From Methanosarcina mazei S-6 (lineage in GTDB: Archaea; Halobacteriota; Methanosarcinia; Methanosarcinales; Methanosarcinaceae): a stretch of DNA of 64,000 nucleotides. A program made the translations under genes and the position numbers. This document shows positions 16,909-53,923 of the stretch, piece after piece. The stretch spans positions 992,001 to 1,056,000 of the forward strand of contig NZ_CP009512.1 of the NCBI RefSeq assembly GCF_000970205.1. Reading direction: 5' to 3'. Under the pieces are notes generated by a model, which saw nothing but the letters and a program-made list of their open reading frames with translations, did not search any database and was not told the DNA's origin. Each line of letters begins with the position of its first letter. Position 1 is the stretch's first letter.

Positions 16909-17433
16909 ATGGTAGAGGACGAAATCCAGGCTATACAAAAAAGTGTTGAAAAAGATTTATTCGAGGAACAGAACAAAGTTCTGGATCGGTTTTATTCATT
17001 GATAACGTTGACATTTACAGCTTTTGCTTTCTCTATTACAGCCCTTAGTTTTTTTTTCGGGAGAGGAGCCCCTAACATCCAGGAAGCTCTCCGTGCTTAT
17101 CATATCGGTTTTTCTTTTCTTTGTCTATTTCTGGCTTTTACAATTTCAATTACTAATGTACTGGCAATATTTCACCACAGAAAGCTGGTAAAAAAGGATT
17201 ACATGATAGGATATAGAGAGGATAATGAACTGATAAATAATAATTTGGCATTATATCTCTCTATTGCAAGACATAAGAATTACTATGTAATTGCAATTAC
17301 TCTTATTGGACTTGGAATTACATCCTTTATTAATCACTTCTCACAGCATCGCATAGTATCCGCTATTCTTGTTGCGGGATTTGTTGTTATAGTACTGTTG
17401 CTAATACGCAATTCTCGCAAGTATCTTTCCTGA
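16909..17433 (+). CDS. Hypothetical four-helix membrane protein
   Basis: I do not recognise a family. The 174-residue protein begins with a charged amphipathic segment of about 35 residues (EIQAIQKSVEKDLFEEQNKV). It then has two membrane helices (LITLTFTAFAFSITALSFFF; IGFSFLCLFLAFTISITNVLA), a cytoplasmic loop with HHRKLVKKDYMIGYREDNE, and two more helices at the C-terminus. It is AT-richer than the core genes around it. The ATG at 16909 follows gggggcaacgg. A frameshifted partial copy of this gene lies 1.3 kb downstream (see 18243). This suggests a duplicated family that is dispensable in at least one copy. Confidence 0.6.
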   Translation: MVEDEIQAIQKSVEKDLFEEQNKVLDRFYSLITLTFTAFAFSITALSFFFGRGAPNIQEALRAYHIGFSFLCLFLAFTISITNVLAIFHHRKLVKKDYMIGYREDNELINNNLALYLSIARHKNYYVIAITLIGLGITSFINHFSQHRIVSAILVAGFVVIVLLLIRNSRKYLS

Positions 17434-41247: not shown

Positions 41248-44200
41248 TTAATTTGTCCACGAATTTGAAAGTGCTTCAGCTTGCTTCAGTACTAATTCAA
41301 TGGCTTCCGGTGCTTTATCTGGCGGATACTTGTAGCGCTGCAACGTACGGCGGACAAGAATGCGTAATTTAGCCCTTACACTATCGCGCACCTGCCAGTC
41401 TACAATAGTGGATTTACGCAGTTTCTCGGTAATTTCTACAGCGATCTTTTTGAGGATTTCATCACCTAACTCACGAACTGCACTTTCGTTGTTCGCTAAG
41501 GCGTCATAAAAAGCCACTTCATCCGGTTGCAGGCCAAGTTCGTCATTGCGTTTGAGTGCTTCTTGAAATTCTTTAGCCATTTGAATCAGTTCTTCAATCA
41601 CCTGGGCAGTCTCAATGGCACGGTTGTTGTACTTACGCAGGGTTTCTTCCAAACGGTCGCTGTACTTCTTTTCCTGCACCACGTTATTACTGGTTTTCGA
41701 TTTTATGTTGTCTTTCAGCAATTTTTCCAGCAGCTCTACTGCCAGATTACGGTAAGGCATCTGCCTGACATCTTCTAAAAACTCATCAGACAGCAGACCA
41801 ATATCAGGTTTCTCTAACCCGGCCAGCTGGAACACATCGACAACACCTTCGGCAATCACGGCATTATCCAGAATCTGCTTGAGAGCCGAGTTCATCTCTT
41901 CCTGGGTGCGCTTTTTATCGACGTATGTAAATTTACTGATGGCGGCTTTAATGGCTGAAAAGAAAGCGATCTCTGCGCGCAGTTCTTTTGCTTCGTCCAG
42001 GGTGCCGCATAATGAATATGCTTTGTTAATCGCCAGCACTGCATCTAAAAAGCGTTTTTTACCGTCATCAAGCCCCAATATATGGTTTGATGCTGGCACC
42101 AGCAGTTTGTAAGCTTGGTCTACAAATTCACTGTAATCAAAACCATGGAAAAGCCCGTGTACGACATCCATTTTTTCCAGCAAGACCGAAAACGCTTCTT
42201 CGGCGCGTAGAGTGGGCTCGCCTCTCCCTCTGGCATCGGTATAGGTTTTCAGTGCTTGCTTTAATTCATTGGCAATGCCGATGTAATCCACTACCAGGCC
42301 GCCAGGCTTGTTTTTAAATACCCGGTTTACCCGTGCAATGGCCTGCATCAGGTTGTGGCCTTTCATCGGTTTGTCGATATACATGGTATGACAGCAGGGC
42401 ACATCAAAACCTGTGAGCCACATATCCCTCACGATCACAAGCTTGAGAGGATCGTTATTATCTTTAAAACGCTTTTCCAATCTTTTCCTGGTCTGCTTGT
42501 TGTAGATATGTGGCTGTAACAACTCACGATCGGATGCCGAGCCTGTCATCACAATTTTTATCGTGCCTTTGCTGGGGTCGGTATCATGCCAATCAGGGCG
42601 CAATTCCACAATGGCATCATATAAATGCACGCAAATCTCCCGGCTCATGGCCACAATCATGGCTTTGCCGTCTATTGATTCCGTGCGTGCTTCAAAGTGT
42701 CCCACCAGGTCGGCAGCTACCTGCCGAATGCGCGGTTCAGCTCCCACCAGTTTTTCTAAGCGGCTCCATCCCCCTTTGGTTTTCTCGCGGTTAGACGTGT
42801 CTTCTTCGTCTTCCACGATGTCTTCAACCTGATCGGACAACCTTTCAATTTCGGCATGATTTAAATCGAGCTTTGCCAGGCGGGACTCGTAATAAATGGC
42901 TACGGTTGCACCATCGTCAACTGCATCCTGGATGTCGTAAATAGAAACATAATCACCAAATACCGAGCGTGTGTCTTTGTCTTCAAGGGCAATCGGTGTA
43001 CCTGTAAAACCAATAAATGAGGCATTGGGCAGGGCATCACGCATGTACTGGGAAAAGCCGAATACCAGTTTGTTACCTGTAACATTGCCGTCTTTATTTT
43101 TTACTTTTATAAAGCGGCCTTTATGGCCATACTGGCTGCGGTGTGCCTCATCGGAAATAACCACAATATTGTGGCGGCCGTTTAAGATCGGGTGGGCACC
43201 TTCGTCCTCAAAGGGTGAAAACTTTTGTACCGTAGTAAAAATAATGCCGCCTGATTCCCGCTCAGATAACAACTGGCGCAGTTCATCCCGGTCGTTGGCC
43301 TGCACCGGTGTTTGCTTAAACAGCTCGTGCGCATTGGAGAATGTTTGGAACAGCTGGCCGTCCAGGTCGTTGCGATCCGTCACCACCAGCAGGGTCGGGT
43401 TATTCATTTCCGGCTGCTGCAACAGCTTCCCGGCATAACAACACATAGAAATACTCTTACCCGAGCCCTGAGTATGCCACACCACACCAGCCTTTTTGCT
43501 GCCGGGCACCACCTCATCCCCGTATTTTGCGCGCTTTTCTGCCACACCTTTCGGGTCCTGTGCAGCAATAATCGTGGCTTTTACTGCTTCTCGCACAGCA
43601 TGGAACTGGTGATAACCGGCTATTTTTTTGATGATTGCTCCACCGTCGTTTTCAAAAAGCACAAAAAAGCGGATGTAATCAAGCAACATCTCGCGGTCGA
43701 AAAAACCCCGCACCAGGGTTTCCAGCTGCCATTCCAGCAGTGGCTTATCATCTTCATTTTTTACAGCACGCCAGGGTGAAAAGCGCTCCTTGTTTGCCGT
43801 CAGCGCACCAATCCGGGCGTTATAACCATCACTTACAACCAGTGCTTCATTAAAAACAAAGAGGTCGCTGATTTCATCTTTGTAGGTTTGCAGCTGATTA
43901 AAGGCATCCCAGATATCGACGTTCTCATCTTCAGGACTTTTAAGCTCTAATACTGCAATGGGCAAGCCGTTAATAAAACAGACCACATCAAGGCGGCGTG
44001 GTCTTTTAGTTCCTTGAATGGTGAACTGATTTACTGCTAAAAAACGGTTATTAGCAATGTTTTCAAAGTCAATTAAAAAAGCGCGGTCGTGAATCGTCTC
44101 GTCATCTTTACGATATTCAACCGGTACACCTTCCAATAACAGGCGGTGGAAGGCGCGATTATTGGTTATCAAATCCAGACTTTCGGGCTTTAAAACAAGA

Positions 44201-44406
44201 GCGATGGCTTGCTCAATGGCATTAAAAGGGAGATGGAGATTAATTTTCTCCAGTGATTCCTGTAGATAATGCTTTAAAATTACCTCGCGGTAATCTTTGC
44301 GTTCGGGATTGTCTGAATCGGGGGCAATGTCAGGGCCATATAAAACATCCCAGCTATTATCTCGGAACCATTCGAGACAGAGTTGTTCTAATTGGTCTTC
44401 ATTCAT
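41248..44406 (-). CDS. hsdR: Type I restriction enzyme R subunit (HsdR)
   Basis: HsdR is the motor and nuclease subunit of a type I restriction system. It translocates DNA from an unmethylated recognition site and cuts it at a distance. The 1052-residue protein has the nuclease core [10 protein letters not shown]...[10 protein letters not shown] near residues 136-160, supplying the Asp and the Glu-x-Lys, and Walker A HTQGSGKS at 311-318. DEAH in [13 protein letters not shown] lies near 425-440, and later helicase motifs include [38 protein letters not shown] and [16 protein letters not shown]. It ends the hsdMSR operon and lies 10 bases after hsdS. Composition and codon use look more bacterial than in neighbouring archaeal genes. 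Confidence 0.95.
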
Positions 44407-44416
44407 AGTTTAACCC

Positions 44417-45736
44417 CTATTCCTCCGCGAACTCGACGGCTTCAACGGATAGTTCACCGGAGAGGAGTTTGGGAAGAAGGAAATCACGAATTTTAGAGAG
44501 ATTATTATTCTCCGTACTGTTGAAAAATATTTTACTAACGATTGGCTCACCAACGTCATTAAATAATTTTATGACGTTTTTAGTTGGAAATGATGCAAAC
44601 ATATTTTTTAGGTCTTTCGATGTAACATGACCCAGGCCCGTTGTTTGCTTGTTTCTTGCAATTTCTATGAAACTTTTTTTGAAAAATTTAAGCAAGAAAA
44701 ATATAAACTCCTTTTCTTCCGCCTCTTGAGGAATTACTCGGAAGGTGTGTTGATTTAGCCATCCATTTCCACCTGTCCACAAAAAGATATCAATGGAGGT
44801 GTCTGGACTACCAGACCACGAAAATAATATTTCCCCGTTGTTTATTCGATATTTTTGATCGAATTCCTTTTTTGTAAATTCAGTTTGAGGTGTTATTCCA
44901 TATTTTAATTCCCTTATTTTTATAATGGGCAATCCTTCATGATTTGAAGAAAAATCCTCACTTTTGAAAGCCGCACCATTTATGTATTGAGCAAAATCAT
45001 AGAGTGATTTTACTTCCCACCCATCTGGAATCTCTCCCAATTCCGACTCCTGCATTGTGGAGGGAAACAGTTCGGCGGTGTTTTTGAGTTGTATGTAGTG
45101 TTCTGGCTGCTCGGCCTGTAATTGGTCTAACTCTTCATCGGTCTTGCCGGAGATGGCACTAATAGCGGCACGAGTTACACCATCAGAATCTTCACCGGCT
45201 TCAATGGCGGCGATTTTGGCTTTGACCGGATCAAAATCTACAAACCAGCTTTTGAAAATGGCTTGTGCCATTGCTTCGAGAGTATAGTTGATCTTGAGAT
45301 TGAGTTCTATTTTGTCGTCAATTTTGCCAAGTATTTCTGCGATTTTCGTCTCATAATTAATGCCAATATCTGAAACAAGAATGCTCGACAAATGGTTCCT
45401 GTTTAATGTCGGAACACCAGAACCAACATTAAATTGTTTGAAATCTATACTTTTTAGAAGATAGTAAACATAGCGAGGATGATGCCCTTTAAAATCTTTA
45501 ACCCATAATGTTGTATTTAGTGGCCAAAAATTTTCTGTGATGAATTGCCCCCCCCCAATACTGCCACTTCGACCAATAACTACTCCAGGAGCTTCAACTT
45601 TTGCTTCATCGTGATAGCCTCCTATCCCTGTTGAAGCAACGACAGGTACATTCCCATTTTTCCTATCGCTTGCCGGAAGGTCAAATCCTCTTTGAAGTAT
45701 GATAAACTCATTTAGAGCTATTGTTTTCTCAAACAT
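44417..45736 (-). CDS. hsdS: Type I restriction specificity subunit (HsdS) with a G9 tract
   Basis: HsdS recognises the DNA target for both methylation and cutting. I start it at ATG 45736, which overlaps the hsdM stop by eight bases (ATGTTTGA). The upstream frame lies inside hsdM. The 439 residues hold two target-recognition domains joined by conserved helices. The first has ALNEFIILQRGFDLPASDR and PGVVIGRSGSIGGG. The central helix is KIDDKIELNLKINYTLEAMA followed by FKSWFVDFDPVKAK. The second domain begins near DGWEVKSLYDFAQYING. Codons 61-63 are Gly-Gly-Gly encoded by nine consecutive G on the coding strand (45548-45556). The C-terminus is LLPKLLSGELSV, a usual HsdS signature. Confidence 0.94.
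   Translation of the reverse strand: MFEKTIALNEFIILQRGFDLPASDRKNGNVPVVASTGIGGYHDEAKVEAPGVVIGRSGSIGGGQFITENFWPLNTTLWVKDFKGHHPRYVYYLLKSIDFKQFNVGSGVPTLNRNHLSSILVSDIGINYETKIAEILGKIDDKIELNLKINYTLEAMAQAIFKSWFVDFDPVKAKIAAIEAGEDSDGVTRAAISAISGKTDEELDQLQAEQPEHYIQLKNTAELFPSTMQESELGEIPDGWEVKSLYDFAQYINGAAFKSEDFSSNHEGLPIIKIRELKYGITPQTEFTKKEFDQKYRINNGEILFSWSGSPDTSIDIFLWTGGNGWLNQHTFRVIPQEAEEKEFIFFLLKFFKKSFIEIARNKQTTGLGHVTSKDLKNMFASFPTKNVIKLFNDVGEPIVSKIFFNSTENNNLSKIRDFLLPKLLSGELSVEAVEFAEE
45548..45556. repeat. G9 homopolymer within hsdS
   Basis: Nine consecutive C on the plus strand (G on the hsdS coding strand) encode Gly61-Gly63. A tract of this length is prone to slippage. Loss or gain of one base would shift the frame inside the first recognition domain. 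Confidence 0.9.
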
Positions 45737-47459
45737 CGAAGCCCAACCCCGCCAAATTCTGTTTAATCTGAGCTTCCAGTTTCCTGCTTTCTTCAAACTG
45801 CTCTTTTAACTGGCTGGTGAGTACAGCCATTTTATCGGCAAATAATATACCATCGTCCTCCTCAGCTTCTGCGCCCACATAGCGGCCAGGGGTCAATACA
45901 AAGTCATTCTTTCGGATTAAGGCGAGATCAGCGGAGAAACAGAAACCTGCCTGGTTATTTTCTTCTGACCATTCTTGCTGCCAATTATGGAAGGTATCTG
46001 CGAGTTTCTGGATATCTTCATCTTTAAAATCCCGCAGTACGCGGTCTTTCATATAACCCAATTTGCGAGCATCAATAAACAGCACCTGGCCGCGGCGATC
46101 ACGCTTGCCATTTTTAGCATTCTTATCTTTGGTTAAAAACCAGATACATGCGGGGATTTGGGTGTTGGTAAAGAGTTGTCCCGGAAGTGCTACCATACAT
46201 TCCACCAGGTCTTGCTCGACAAGAGTTTTGCGAATTTCCCCTTCATTATTGGTGTTACTGCTCATGGAACCGTTAGCCAGTAAAAGCGCCATGCTGCCCG
46301 TGGGAGCCAGGTGGTACAGCATATGCAACATCCATGCGAAGTTGGCGTTACCCGTCGGTGGAGTAAGGATGCGTTTTTCGCCGTTGGTATTGATGGTCCA
46401 GCGCGGATCGTCGGCAAGCTTTTCGTGCCACCAGTCCTTCATATTAAAAGGCGGGTTGGTCATGACAAAGTCGGCTCGCAGGTCGGGGTGCTGGTCGTCT
46501 AAAAAGGAGTCAGCGTTCTTTTTGCCAAAATTAAAATCAATGCCACGAATGACCATGTTCATGGCAGCAAGCTTCCAGGTGGTGGGGTTGGATTCCTGCC
46601 CGTATACCGAAATTTGTTTTTTCTGTTCGGAAGCATTGTAATGTTTTACATTGGCGTGTTTTTCAATGAATTTGTCACTCGAAACAAAAAAACCGCCGCT
46701 GCCCATGGCTGGGTCGTACACACGGCCTTTGTAGGGCTCCAGCATTTCCACGATCAAAGTAACGATAGATTTGGGTGTATAATACTGGCCTCCCTGCTTG
46801 CCTTCGGCAAGGGCAAATTGGCCCAAAAAGTATTCGTAAACATGGCCGAGAATGTCTTTGGACTTAAGGTTAAGTTTTTCGCCGTTGTACTCGGGGTTAT
46901 TAAAACTGGTAAGGCTAAATTCATTGATCAGGCCAATAAGCTTGTCTGCATCCAATTGGTATTGGCTGATGCGGTTGAGAATGCCTTTGAGCTTTGGGTT
47001 GGCTTTTTCAATGTCATCGAATGCATTATCAATCAGCCATGACACGGATCTCAGTTTAACGTCTTCGCCCTGTTCGTCTTGCCAGATAACACTGCCAGTG
47101 GGAAGAGTAATTACATCTCTCAGTTTGTTCCAGCGGGCGGTTTTGGGTACCCAGAAAACATTTTTTTCGGTGTAGTAGTCACCAATTTCCAGCTCTTCTG
47201 CTATGGCTTGCTGGTAGGCTTCATCGCTGTCATAATCTTCGCGGGGCAGGTAATAGATATTGTCGTCATCGTCTTTTTGAAACAGCTCAGTAAGTTCTTG
47301 CTGGCGCTCTTCGAAGGCATCAGACACGTATTTAAGGAAAATAAGCCCTAACACCACATGTTTGTAATTGGCGGCATCCAGGTTAGAGCGCAGTTTGTCG
47401 GCAGCCCTCCAGAGCTGGTTATCGAGATCATTTAAAAATTGCTGTTCGATATCAATCAT
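45729..47459 (-). CDS. hsdM: Type I modification methylase subunit (HsdM)
   Basis: HsdM methylates adenine N6 in the recognition sequence with SAM, protecting the host. The 576-residue protein has the N-terminal helical domain (DLDNQLWRAADKLRSNLDAANYKHVVLGLIFLKYVSD), then QYYTPKSIVTLIVEM near 226-240. SAM motif I lies in DPAMGSGGFF at 249-258, and the catalytic NPPF is at 335-338. Later motifs include GQLFTNTQIPACIWFLTKD. The start at 47459 has a short AT-rich leader. It opens the operon, with hsdS overlapping its end. Confidence 0.96.
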   Translation of the reverse strand: MIDIEQQFLNDLDNQLWRAADKLRSNLDAANYKHVVLGLIFLKYVSDAFEERQQELTELFQKDDDDNIYYLPREDYDSDEAYQQAIAEELEIGDYYTEKNVFWVPKTARWNKLRDVITLPTGSVIWQDEQGEDVKLRSVSWLIDNAFDDIEKANPKLKGILNRISQYQLDADKLIGLINEFSLTSFNNPEYNGEKLNLKSKDILGHVYEYFLGQFALAEGKQGGQYYTPKSIVTLIVEMLEPYKGRVYDPAMGSGGFFVSSDKFIEKHANVKHYNASEQKKQISVYGQESNPTTWKLAAMNMVIRGIDFNFGKKNADSFLDDQHPDLRADFVMTNPPFNMKDWWHEKLADDPRWTINTNGEKRILTPPTGNANFAWMLHMLYHLAPTGSMALLLANGSMSSNTNNEGEIRKTLVEQDLVECMVALPGQLFTNTQIPACIWFLTKDKNAKNGKRDRRGQVLFIDARKLGYMKDRVLRDFKDEDIQKLADTFHNWQQEWSEENNQAGFCFSADLALIRKNDFVLTPGRYVGAEAEEDDGILFADKMAVLTSQLKEQFEESRKLEAQIKQNLAGLGFDV

Positions 47460-49790: not shown

Positions 49791-51557
49791 ATGAGAATAG
49801 CTATACTTAACAAAGACAGGTGCCAGCCCAGAAGGTGCAGCAAGGAGTGCGAAAAGTACTGTCCCAGAGTCAGGACAGGAGATGAGACCATTGTTTTTGA
49901 GGCAGACGGAAAGCCGGTCATCTCCGAGGAACTCTGTGTGGGCTGTGGAATATGCGTCAACAAATGTCCTTTCGAAGCCATTATGATCATAGGGCTCCCT
50001 GAAGCCCTGCAGGAACCAACTCACAGGTACGGACCAAACGGTTTTGCCCTTTTCGGGCTTCCGGTACCCAGGACAGGAAAAGTAACCGGTATTCTGGGAC
50101 CTAACGGTATAGGAAAAAGTACTTCGGTCCAGATCCTCTCAGGAGCCCTGGTCCCCAATTTCGGGAAGGGAAAAGGAGACTGGGACACTGTACTCGAGCA
50201 TTATGCCGGAACTGCGCTTCACGACTATTTCAAGGACGTTGTGGATGGGAGGGTAAAGGTTTCCCAGAAGCCCCAGTATGTTGACCTCATTCCCAGAGCC
50301 TTCAAAGGAAAAACCTCTGAGCTGCTTGAGAAAACCGATGAAAGAGGCGTTCTGGACGAGCTTATCGACCATCTTGGCCTGAGAAGTGTTATAGGAAGAA
50401 ATATTACCGAATTGAGCGGTGGAGAACTGCAGAGGGTTGCTATTGCTGCCTGTGCGGCAAGAGATGCTCAGTTCTATTTCTTTGACGAAATAAGCCCTTA
50501 TCTTGATATTTACCAGAGGATCAACGCAGCTCGCCTTATCCAGGAAATTTCAAAGGACAGGGCAGTACTTGTGGTCGAGCACGACCTTGCACTTCTTGAT
50601 ATGCTTACAGATGTAATTCACATAGCTTACGGTGAACCCGCAGGCTTTGGTGTGGTTACTCTTCCGAAAAGTGTGCGTGTGGGGATTAACCAGTACCTTA
50701 AAGGCTACCTCCCTGAAGAAAACATAAGGATTCGCCCTGAATCCATCAAGTTTGAGATCCATCCTCCAAGGGAAGATGCCCAGTTCAGGTCCATGATTTC
50801 CTTTAACGGTTTCTCAAAGAAGTTTGGGGACGGATTCTCCCTCAAAGCCACAGGAGGAAACCTGCGTGAAGGCGAGGTGCTCGGGATAGTTGGTCCTAAT
50901 GGGATAGGGAAATCAACTTTCGTAAAAGTTCTGGCGGGTGAAATAAAGCCCGACGAAGGAGACCCGGGAATCGAGGTAAAAATCTCCTACAAGCCCCAGT
51001 ACATCAAAGCCGATATTCCTTTGAGTGTCCAGGACTTCTTAAGGGGCATTTCAAAGCAGTTCGGAAGCAGTTATTATGAGGTTGAGATCTCAAACCCTCT
51101 CCAGCTTGAGAAAATTTACGACAGCCTGCTTACAGACCTCAGTGGTGGGGAACTTCAGAGGGTAGCAGTTGCTGCCTGCCTTTCCCAGGAAGCAGACCTC
51201 TATATTCTTGACGAGCCGAGCGCCCACCTTGATGTTGAGCAGCGTTCCATGGTCACCAAAGTCATCAACCGTTTTGCCGAAAACAACCAGAAAACCGCTC
51301 TGGTGGTTGATCACGATATTTACATGATAGATATGCTCAGCCAGCGTCTCCTTGTTTTTGAAGGAGAACCCTCAGTTTACGGTGAAGCCCACGGTCCTTT
51401 CAGCATGGAAGGCGGCATGAACAGGTTCCTGAAAAACCTCGGCATAACCTTCCGAAGGGATGAAGAAACAAGGCGTCCCCGTGTAAACAACCTTGGCTCA
51501 AGGCTTGACCGGGAGCAGAAAGAAAGTGGAAACTATTATTATTCTGCTAAGGAGTGA
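49791..51557 (+). CDS. Ribosome recycling ATPase ABCE1/RLI
   Basis: ABCE1 splits ribosomal subunits after termination and is almost universal in archaea. The 588-residue protein starts with an iron-sulfur domain: Cys 11, 16, 20, 24 and 49, 52, 55, 59 bind two 4Fe-4S clusters. Then come twin ABC domains, each with Walker A GPNGIGKST and signature LSGGELQRVA(I/V)AAC. Walker B strands read FYFFDEISPYLD and LYILDEPSAHLD, with the hinge segments between. The length and order match the family. The start at 49791 follows ccgggga about eight bases upstream. Confidence 0.97.
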   Translation: MRIAILNKDRCQPRRCSKECEKYCPRVRTGDETIVFEADGKPVISEELCVGCGICVNKCPFEAIMIIGLPEALQEPTHRYGPNGFALFGLPVPRTGKVTGILGPNGIGKSTSVQILSGALVPNFGKGKGDWDTVLEHYAGTALHDYFKDVVDGRVKVSQKPQYVDLIPRAFKGKTSELLEKTDERGVLDELIDHLGLRSVIGRNITELSGGELQRVAIAACAARDAQFYFFDEISPYLDIYQRINAARLIQEISKDRAVLVVEHDLALLDMLTDVIHIAYGEPAGFGVVTLPKSVRVGINQYLKGYLPEENIRIRPESIKFEIHPPREDAQFRSMISFNGFSKKFGDGFSLKATGGNLREGEVLGIVGPNGIGKSTFVKVLAGEIKPDEGDPGIEVKISYKPQYIKADIPLSVQDFLRGISKQFGSSYYEVEISNPLQLEKIYDSLLTDLSGGELQRVAVAACLSQEADLYILDEPSAHLDVEQRSMVTKVINRFAENNQKTALVVDHDIYMIDMLSQRLLVFEGEPSVYGEAHGPFSMEGGMNRFLKNLGITFRRDEETRRPRVNNLGSRLDREQKESGNYYYSAKE

Positions 51558-51730: not shown

Positions 51731-53923
51731 ATGAAGATAGAAAGCCTCGACCTGCCCGATGAAATAAAGCGCTTTTACGAAAACTCCGGGATTCTTGAAC
51801 TTTATCCGCCACAGGCAGAAGCTGTTGAGAAAGGCCTGCTTGAAGGAAAAAACCTGCTTGCTGCAATTCCTACGGCTTCGGGAAAGACTCTTCTTGCCGA
51901 GCTTGCGATGTTGAAGTCTGTGCTTAATGGAGGAAAGGCACTCTATATCGTGCCCCTGAGAGCTCTTGCTTCCGAGAAATTCAGGCGGTTTCAGGAATTT
52001 TCCGTACTGGGCATGAGGGTCGGGATTTCAACAGGAGACTACGACAGGCGAGACGAAGGGCTCGGCATAAATGATATTATTGTTGCAACCTCTGAAAAAA
52101 CAGATTCCCTGCTCAGGAACGAGACTGCCTGGATGCAGGAGATCTCTGTTGTTGTGGCAGATGAAGTTCACCTTATTGATTCTCCAGACAGGGGTCCGAC
52201 GCTTGAAATCACCCTTTCAAAGCTCAGGCGAATGAACCCTTCCTGTCAGGTCCTTGCACTTTCGGCAACAGTAGGAAATGCCGATGAGCTTGCAGCCTGG
52301 CTTGATGCCGAACTTGTATTAAGCGAGTGGAGGCCCACCGACCTTATGGAAGGGGTGTTTTATAACGGGATTTTTTACTGCAAGGATAAGGAGAAGCCTG
52401 TTGGGCAGCCAACAAAAGATGAGGCAGTAAACCTGGTTCTCGATACTATAAAGGAAGGAGGACAGTGCCTTGTTTTCGAGAGCAGCAGGAAGAACTGCAT
52501 GGGTTTTGCAAAAAAAGCAGTTTCTGCAGTAAAAAAGACTCTTTCTAATGAAGACCGTGAAACTCTTGCAGGCATTGCTGACGAGATCATTGAAAACAGT
52601 GAAACCGATGTTTCATCAGTTCTTGCCACCTGTGTCCGTTCAGGGACAGCATTCCACCACGCAGGCCTTACAACGCCTTTGAGGGAGCTTGTAGAAAACG
52701 GCTTTCGTGAAGGGCGTATAAAAATTATTTCAAGCACTCCTACCCTTGCAGCAGGGTTGAACCTTCCTGCCAGGCGTGTGATAATAAGGAGTTACCGGCG
52801 TTACTCTTCAGATTCGGGCATGCAGCCAATCCCGGTACTTGAATACAAGCAGATGGCAGGAAGGGCAGGGAGGCCGAGGCTTGACCCTTACGGAGAAGCT
52901 GTCCTGCTTGCAAAGTCTTACGAGGAGTTTGTCTTCCTTTTCGAAAAATACATCGAAGCCGGAGCTGAAGATATATGGTCCAAGCTGGGTACGGAAAATG
53001 CCCTCAGGACGCATATACTTTCTACGATCTCGAACGGGTTTGCCCGGACAAGGGAAGAACTCATGGATTTCCTCGAGGCAACATTTTTCGCTTTCCAGTA
53101 CTCAAACTTCGGGCTCTCCGCGGTTGTGGACGAATGCCTGGACTTTTTGAGGCGGGAAGGTATGCTTGAAAAAGACCCCGATGCCCTTGTTTCCACGGTT
53201 TTCGGAAAACTCGTATCAAGGCTCTACATCGACCCTCTCTCTGCAGCTCTTATTGCAAAGGGCTTGAGGGAAGCAGGTACCCTTACCGAGCTTACCCTTC
53301 TGCACCTGATATGCAGCACTCCGGATATGCGTCTTATGTATATGCGGAGCCAGGACTACCAGGAAGTCAACGACTACGTAATGGCTCACGCAGGCGAGTT
53401 TTCAAAGGTTCCGAATCCCTTCAATATCGCCGAGTACGAGTGGTTCCTTGGTGAGGTAAAGACCTCTCTCCTTCTGATGGACTGGATACATGAGAAGCCT
53501 GAAAACGAGATCTGTCTGAAGTTCGGGATAGGGGAAGGTGATATCCATGCAACTGCAGATATTGCCGAATGGATAATGCATGTTACAGCCCAGCTTGCAG
53601 GACTTCTCGACCTTAAAGGTGCAAAAGAAGCCTCAGAACTGGAAAAGAGGATCAGGTATGGAGCAGCCCCGGAACTTATGGACCTGCTTGATATCAGAAG
53701 TGTGGGGCGCGTGAGAGCAAGAAAACTTTATGAGGCAGGCTTTAAGTCCACAGCTGAACTCGCAGCAGCTTCTCCTGAACATATAGCCGTACTTGTAGGA
53801 CCAAAGATTACTGAAAGGATTTTCAAGCAGATCGGACGTAGAGAAGCGGTATCTGAATTTTCTGATATTGAGCCTCTGGAAAAAGGTTCTTCCGATGGGC
53901 AGAGGACAATTAGTGATTATTGA
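51731..53923 (+). CDS. hel308: Superfamily 2 helicase Hel308
   Basis: Hel308 is an archaeal 3'-5' DNA helicase for repair at stalled forks. The 730-residue protein has motif Q/I with [16 protein letters not shown] at residues about 43-58, DEVH in [16 protein letters not shown] near 142, motif [12 protein letters not shown] near 175, motif [12 protein letters not shown] near 248, and motif [15 protein letters not shown] near 376. A winged-helix and a ratchet domain follow, ending in a helix-hairpin-helix region [22 protein letters not shown] near 656-677. The size agrees with the family. The start at 51731 sits in an AT-rich leader without a strong site. Confidence 0.95.

What the first reader, a model, noticed from the sequence alone, without database searches (positions are those of the whole stretch)
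45548..45556. G9 tract in hsdS could phase-vary a type I restriction system
Nine consecutive G encode a Gly triplet in the first recognition domain. Homopolymers of this length slip readily, and a one-base change would shift the frame and stop HsdS early. Switching of specificity or loss of restriction by this route is known in bacteria. In an archaeon it would be notable.
Basis: partly seen in the sequence, partly recalled or inferred. Interest (0 to 1): 0.55.

Follow-up and report, generated by a model that had tools for sequence, protein, structure and literature searches.

The report
Chance G-run in archaeal restriction gene
A run of nine G bases in a methane-making archaeon's DNA-restriction gene could in principle slip and switch the gene off, but comparisons suggest it is an accident of how three glycines are spelled, while the gene really changes by swapping whole recognition domains.

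Summary
Window 45548-45556 is C9 on the + strand, that is G9 in hsdS on the minus strand, coding three in-frame glycines (G61-G63) in target recognition domain 1 (TRD1). A one-base slip gives a 72- or 79-residue stub. The genes form an intact-looking hsdM-hsdS-hsdR Type I cassette in a Methanosarcinaceae genome.

The proposed phase-variation switch lacks support. G9 is unique in the genome, but the decay of run lengths (59 G7, 6 G8, 1 G9) predicts about 0.6-0.7 such runs. The glycine triplet is conserved in five relatives, always without a long run. Of about 124 other hsdS places from Methanosarcinaceae, one has a G/C run of 8 and none has 9. G9 or longer runs occur in 19 of 30 same-genus genomes, some in housekeeping genes. 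MutS and MutL are present.

The cassette does change by another route. Three same-genus genomes carry it at the same locus with HsdM 90-93% identical but both TRDs replaced. This TRD1 is 75% identical to an E. coli HsdS, although the two HsdM proteins share only 43%. That is TRD exchange, here between archaea and bacteria.

Slippage itself is untested: no reads or sister strains were available.

The parts
45548..45556 (-). G9 tract (C9 on +): three in-frame GGG codons, Gly61-Gly63 of HsdS
   Evidence: only G9 in the genome
44417..45736 (-). hsdS, specificity subunit, 439 aa, most likely start ATG 45736 overlapping the hsdM stop
   Evidence: (PF01420, two stretches)
45316..45736 (-). TRD1 of HsdS; replaced in the three orthologous cassettes, 75% identical with the following conserved region to an E. 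coli HsdS
45016..45315 (-). central conserved region of hsdS, 83-86% DNA identity to the three orthologues
44520..45015 (-). TRD2 of HsdS (approximate limits), also replaced in the three orthologues
45729..47459 (-). hsdM, N6-adenine methyltransferase subunit, 576 aa
   Evidence: PF02384, PF12161; 90-93% identical orthologues
41248..44406 (-). hsdR, restriction subunit, 1052 aa
   Evidence: PF04313, PF18766, PF11867; orthologues at 89-93% DNA identity

Best explanation
This is an ordinary, intact-looking Type I restriction-modification cassette. HsdS carries a conserved Gly-Gly-Gly at the start of a beta strand in TRD1. In this genome all three glycines happen to be spelled GGG, which makes a G9 run. 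The run can slip like any homopolymer, and a slip would truncate HsdS and silence both methylation and restriction, but it is most likely a neutral by-product of codon choice and not a maintained phase-variation switch. The route by which this locus demonstrably diversifies is replacement of whole TRDs at a fixed chromosomal site, including a TRD1 whose close relative is found in E. coli. Shown: gene content, frame, chance expectation, codon comparison, TRD replacement. Inferred: neutrality of the tract, and loss of function on slippage.
For: Run-length tail predicts 0.61-0.74 runs of 9 or more per genome. Five relatives keep the triplet without a run: L012 GGT GGC GGC, L019 GGT GGC GGT, L021 GGC GGA GGG, L088 GGA GGT GGT, E. 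coli L306 GGT GGT GGT. Outside the tract 3 of 11 glycines conserved with E. coli are GGG, and 63 of 128 conserved residues have a different codon, so three GGG in a row needs no special cause. In about 124 other hsdS places (129 loci) one has a G/C run of 8 and none has 9. The genus has 37 distinct G9-or-longer runs in 19 of 30 genomes (read), among them in a pyruvate carboxylase-type subunit, a Nop-domain protein and the IIGGGTIG motif of an oxidoreductase, and none of the ten spanning ORFs that I scanned is an R-M gene. MutS and MutL with long open frames are present. Orthologous cassettes at the same locus in G093, G103 and G101: HsdM 93, 93 and 90% identical, hsdR 93, 89 and 89% at DNA level, same neighbours, both TRDs unrelated, longest G/C run 4-5.
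Against: The one G9 of the genome sits in a Type I specificity gene, a class known to phase-vary; hsdS is only 0.03% of the genome, though this was noticed after the fact. The tract lies early in the gene, where a slip is fully inactivating. G tracts can change length in this genus: an intergenic run is G10 in G080 and G9 in G102 with identical flanks. Reads and sister strains were not available.
Confidence: 0.8

Rival explanations
1. A true contingency locus: slipped-strand mispairing at G9 switches HsdS, and so the whole Type I system, between ON (G9) and OFF (G8/G10), giving an archaeal population with mixed restriction and methylation states.
For: In-frame G9 where +/-1 gives a 72- or 79-aa stub; the only G9 in the genome falls in hsdS; poly-G hsdS phase variation is documented in Neisseria gonorrhoeae NgoAV (PMC6789123 passages); G tracts differ by one base between two same-genus species at one intergenic site.
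Against: Expected by chance; tract absent in all five relatives with the same glycine triplet, in orthologous alleles at the same locus and in the Methanosarcinaceae hsdS survey; mismatch repair genes present, which in bacteria restrain mononucleotide slippage (recalled). Nine G is at the short end for bacterial contingency tracts (recalled).
Confidence: 0.12
2. The tract tunes expression below the DNA level: RNA polymerase or the ribosome slips on G9 in a fraction of transcripts, lowering HsdS dose.
For: Homopolymer position and frame only.
Against: The zero frame already encodes the full protein, so no recoding is needed; the tract is not conserved; no structural or slippery motif was sought.
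Confidence: 0.03
3. Sequencing or assembly error in the tract length.
For: Homopolymers are error-prone in some platforms; a G9 at a contig end in draft genome G100 leaves the ABC signature LSGGQ out of frame.
Against: G9 leaves the reading frame open for 439 residues with a conserved Gly triplet matching five relatives; one closed contig. An error by a multiple of three is the only kind not excluded by frame.
Confidence: 0.05

Closest known systems
NgoAV hsdS poly-G, Neisseria gonorrhoeae (PMC6789123, passages read)
   Same: Type I hsdS with a G homopolymer whose one-base change shifts the frame.
   Different: In NgoAV the variable tract yields a shorter but functional HsdS with another specificity and strain variation was seen; here the tract is in TRD1, a slip gives a stub, and no variation is known.
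Type I systems diversified by TRD exchange / domain movement (S. aureus Sau1 PMC5399793 and H. pylori PMC3983042, search listings only)
   Same: Conserved M and R, conserved central HsdS region, unrelated TRDs at one locus.
   Different: Here between species of an archaeal genus, with one TRD close to one found in E. coli chromosomes.
Persistent Type I systems of Methanosarcina (HG7, HG8, HG14, HG17 in PMC10609329, passages read)
   Same: Type I M/R pairs that persist in the genus while S is the least conserved part.
   Different: I could not match this cassette to one of those groups (supplement not readable here). The paper suggests exchange rather than vertical inheritance; here flanks and M/R are orthologous and only the TRDs differ.

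Membership tests
Type I restriction-modification system | HsdM with HsdM_N and N6 methylase domains | tested here: met
   PF02384 and PF12161
Type I restriction-modification system | HsdS with two TRDs separated by long helices | tested here: met
   two PF01420 stretches; model pLDDT 93.7 with helices 126-166 and 386-426; best PDB matches are S subunits 1yf2 and 1ydx
Type I restriction-modification system | HsdR with nuclease and SWI2/SNF2 translocase domains next to M and S | tested here: met
   PF04313, PF18766, PF11867; gene order
Type I restriction-modification system | sequence-specific m6A methylation and ATP-dependent restriction | not testable with these tools
   needs methylome and cleavage data
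Phase-variable hsdS by slipped-strand mispairing | coding homopolymer where +/-1 base shifts the frame | tested here: met
Phase-variable hsdS by slipped-strand mispairing | tract longer than the genome's chance expectation | tested here: not met
   0.61-0.74 runs expected, 1 seen
Phase-variable hsdS by slipped-strand mispairing | tract kept in related genes | tested here: not met
   0 of 5 relatives with the Gly triplet; 0 of about 124 hsdS places with a run of 9
Phase-variable hsdS by slipped-strand mispairing | tract-length variants among cells or isolates, with ON/OFF phenotype | not testable with these tools
   no reads; one genome per species held
Allelic hsdS series by TRD exchange | orthologous locus with conserved M, R and central S region but unrelated TRDs | tested here: met
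   3 of 30 same-genus genomes with HsdM at 90% or more besides the window's own
Allelic hsdS series by TRD exchange | a TRD shared with another host at identity well above the rest of the operon | tested here: met
   TRD1 plus following region 129/171 against E. coli L306, HsdM 241/559

The most novel reading that the evidence does not exclude
The G9 is a working slip switch that turns an archaeal Type I system on and off. With the TRD exchange seen at the same locus, this methanogen would combine slow domain swapping with fast on/off switching of its DNA-modification barrier, and would be a case of homopolymer phase variation of restriction-modification in archaea.
Probability: 0.1. Interest if true: 0.6.

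Novelty: new member of a known kind. Interest (0 to 1): 0.2.

Why it matters
If the tract were a switch it would extend simple-repeat phasevarions to archaea. As it stands, the value is a caution: in this genus G9-G10 runs arise in housekeeping genes too, so a long homopolymer in an hsdS gene is not by itself evidence of phase variation. The TRD comparison gives a clear archaeal example of specificity turnover at a fixed Type I locus, with a recognition domain shared between a methanogen and E. coli.

Tried and rejected
Specificity switching by recombination within the window: rejected, no second copy of hsdS or its central region in the window. Over-representation of the tract: rejected by the run-length tail. 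Conservation of the tract in homologues: rejected; of 13 plasmid TRD1 relatives fetched out of 37 records found, none has the Gly triplet, so they say nothing on codon choice. A degenerate GxxGGGQ(F/Y) pattern met 4 of 392 phylum genomes; the hits in G438 and G160 gave no match to HsdS and were dropped. No match of that motif in viral contigs with a stricter pattern; no match of hsdS DNA in phages. Literature: searches on Methanosarcina with phase variation, archaea with homopolymers, poly-G tracts and phase-variable systems, and M. mazei with type I restriction or methylome showed in their listings and in the passages read no archaeal poly-G hsdS switch; this is limited to the held open-access library. 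Follow-up of a frame-shifted pilin with G11 in G083 is reported under Noticed in passing.

Full report
What is there. The + strand reads nine C at 45548-45556. hsdS is on the minus strand, so the gene reads G9. Its likely start is the ATG at 45736, which overlaps the end of hsdM (45729-47459), and hsdR follows at 41248-44406. Pfam calls HsdM (PF02384, PF12161), HsdS (PF01420, two stretches) and HsdR (PF04313, PF18766, PF11867). The genus Methanosarcina is my inference from the 5,751,492-bp size of G075, which I recall for M. acetivorans C2A.

Frame and structure. G9 is codons 61-63, GGG GGG GGG, in GRSGSIGGGQF. One G fewer ends HsdS after 72 residues, one more after 79, counted from the ATG. 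The AlphaFold model (mean pLDDT 93.7) puts residues 61-63 at the start of strand 61-66 of TRD1, and the nearest solved structures are Type I S subunits (sequence match to 1yf2). Across 30 aligned HsdS, Gly58 and Gly61 are nearly invariant. So a slip would be inactivating, but the glycines themselves have a protein-level reason to be there.

Is the run more than chance? It is the only G9 in 4.14 Mb. The same genome has 74 overlapping G7 matches, which I resolve into 59 runs of 7, 6 of 8 and 1 of 9. Extrapolating the decay gives 0.61-0.74 runs of 9 or more, that is a 46-52% chance of at least one. Its place in hsdS is striking only after the fact (hsdS is 0.03% and the cassette 0.15% of the genome).

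Do relatives keep the run? Five relatives share Gly-Gly-Gly at this place: L012, L019, L021 and L088 and an E. coli chromosomal HsdS, L306. Their codons are GGT GGC GGC, GGT GGC GGT, GGC GGA GGG, GGA GGT GGT and GGT GGT GGT; none has a long run. Between the window and E. coli, 63 of 128 conserved residues of this region use a different codon, and 3 of the 11 conserved glycines outside the tract are GGG in the window. In 129 loci around hsdS hits (124 distinct places, taken from the listed part, the window's own hsdS left out) one, L251, has a G/C run of 8 and none has 9. The loci are 2-6 kb stretches, so they cover more than hsdS; both listings were cut by the tool.

What do such runs sit in elsewhere in the genus? 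19 of 30 genomes have G9 or longer, 37 distinct runs. I read the context of all 37 (25, the window's own among them, and 12). Many are intergenic. I scanned ten of the spanning ORFs with Pfam: MacB-type permease, PAS histidine kinase, pyruvate carboxylase-type subunit, DHH-family protein, bifunctional nuclease domain, glycosyltransferase, GATase1-like, Nop domain, UbiA prenyltransferase and a pyridine nucleotide oxidoreductase. None is a restriction-modification gene. The oxidoreductase run codes IIGGGTIG, the same kind of accident: a conserved glycine motif spelled with G. MutS and MutL domains with long open frames are present in the window's genome.

What does change at this locus. HsdM is 93, 93 and 90% identical in G093, G103 and G101. 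In all three the cassette lies at the same place beside the same neighbours (ABC-type protein at 49791 and helicase at 51731), with hsdR at 89-93% and hsdM plus flank at 84-88% DNA identity. Only hsdS breaks: TRD1 falls to 28-53% and TRD2 to about 23-47% in 71-nt bins, while the central region stays at 73-92%. The three alleles have no G/C run above 5. The window's TRD1 with the following conserved region is 129/171 identical to E. coli L306, yet the two HsdM proteins align with only 241 identities in 559 columns. Blastn in E. coli found 310 of 5,426 genomes with some match; of 30 rows taken evenly down that ranking, 9 carry the full TRD1 match. The hsdM DNA itself also has relatives at about 70% on Klebsiella plasmids. 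The simplest reading is that TRDs are exchanged as modules, across domains of life, at a chromosomally stable Type I locus. The direction of transfer is not shown.

Verdict. Observation confirmed. The phase-variation reading is mechanically possible and not refuted, since reads and sister strains were not available, but every comparative test that I could run fits a neutral homopolymer. PMC10609329 (passages read) reports four persistent Type I systems in Methanosarcina and notes that S is the least conserved subunit; its text has no occurrence of 'phase vari' with a space, though it cites phase-variable Type I surveys in bacteria. PMC2831843 (abstract and passages) argues that homopolymers are a general inactivation system in prokaryotes, 18 archaea included, mainly for poly(A) and poly(T); it says poly(C) and poly(G) tracts were not closer to gene starts.

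Noticed in passing
L290/L144 (G083:C1:187488-187498): G11 inside a type IV pilin-like gene of another same-genus genome; the N-terminal part (...VFSDGGGG) runs out of frame while the expected continuation (AINPPCVPRTDL...) lies in another frame. Most relatives have G5 or less there (one G7), so this looks like an expanded tract in a broken or switchable pilin gene.
   Followed up: partly
L159 (G080) and L156 (G102): The same intergenic G run with identical 9-base flanks is G10 in one species and G9 in the other: a real length difference of a G tract within the genus.
   Followed up: no
L192/L238 (G000:C1:3717755-3718267): Another hsdS-like hit in the same genome has one in-frame TAG; in this genus TAG can mean pyrrolysine (recalled) or the gene is broken.
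   Followed up: no
G000 whole genome: 14 Methylase_S domain matches, so several Type I specificity genes besides the one in the window.
   Followed up: no
L155 (G100:C93, contig end): G9 next to the ABC signature motif puts LSGGQ out of frame; draft contig end, so possibly an assembly error.
   Followed up: no
window 17049-17057: A T9 run of the same length as the finding, in the same window.
   Followed up: no
L251 (G035:C1, near 802797): A G8/C8 run in another archaeal hsdS, coding the Pro-Pro of ICSPPEQ.
   Followed up: partly
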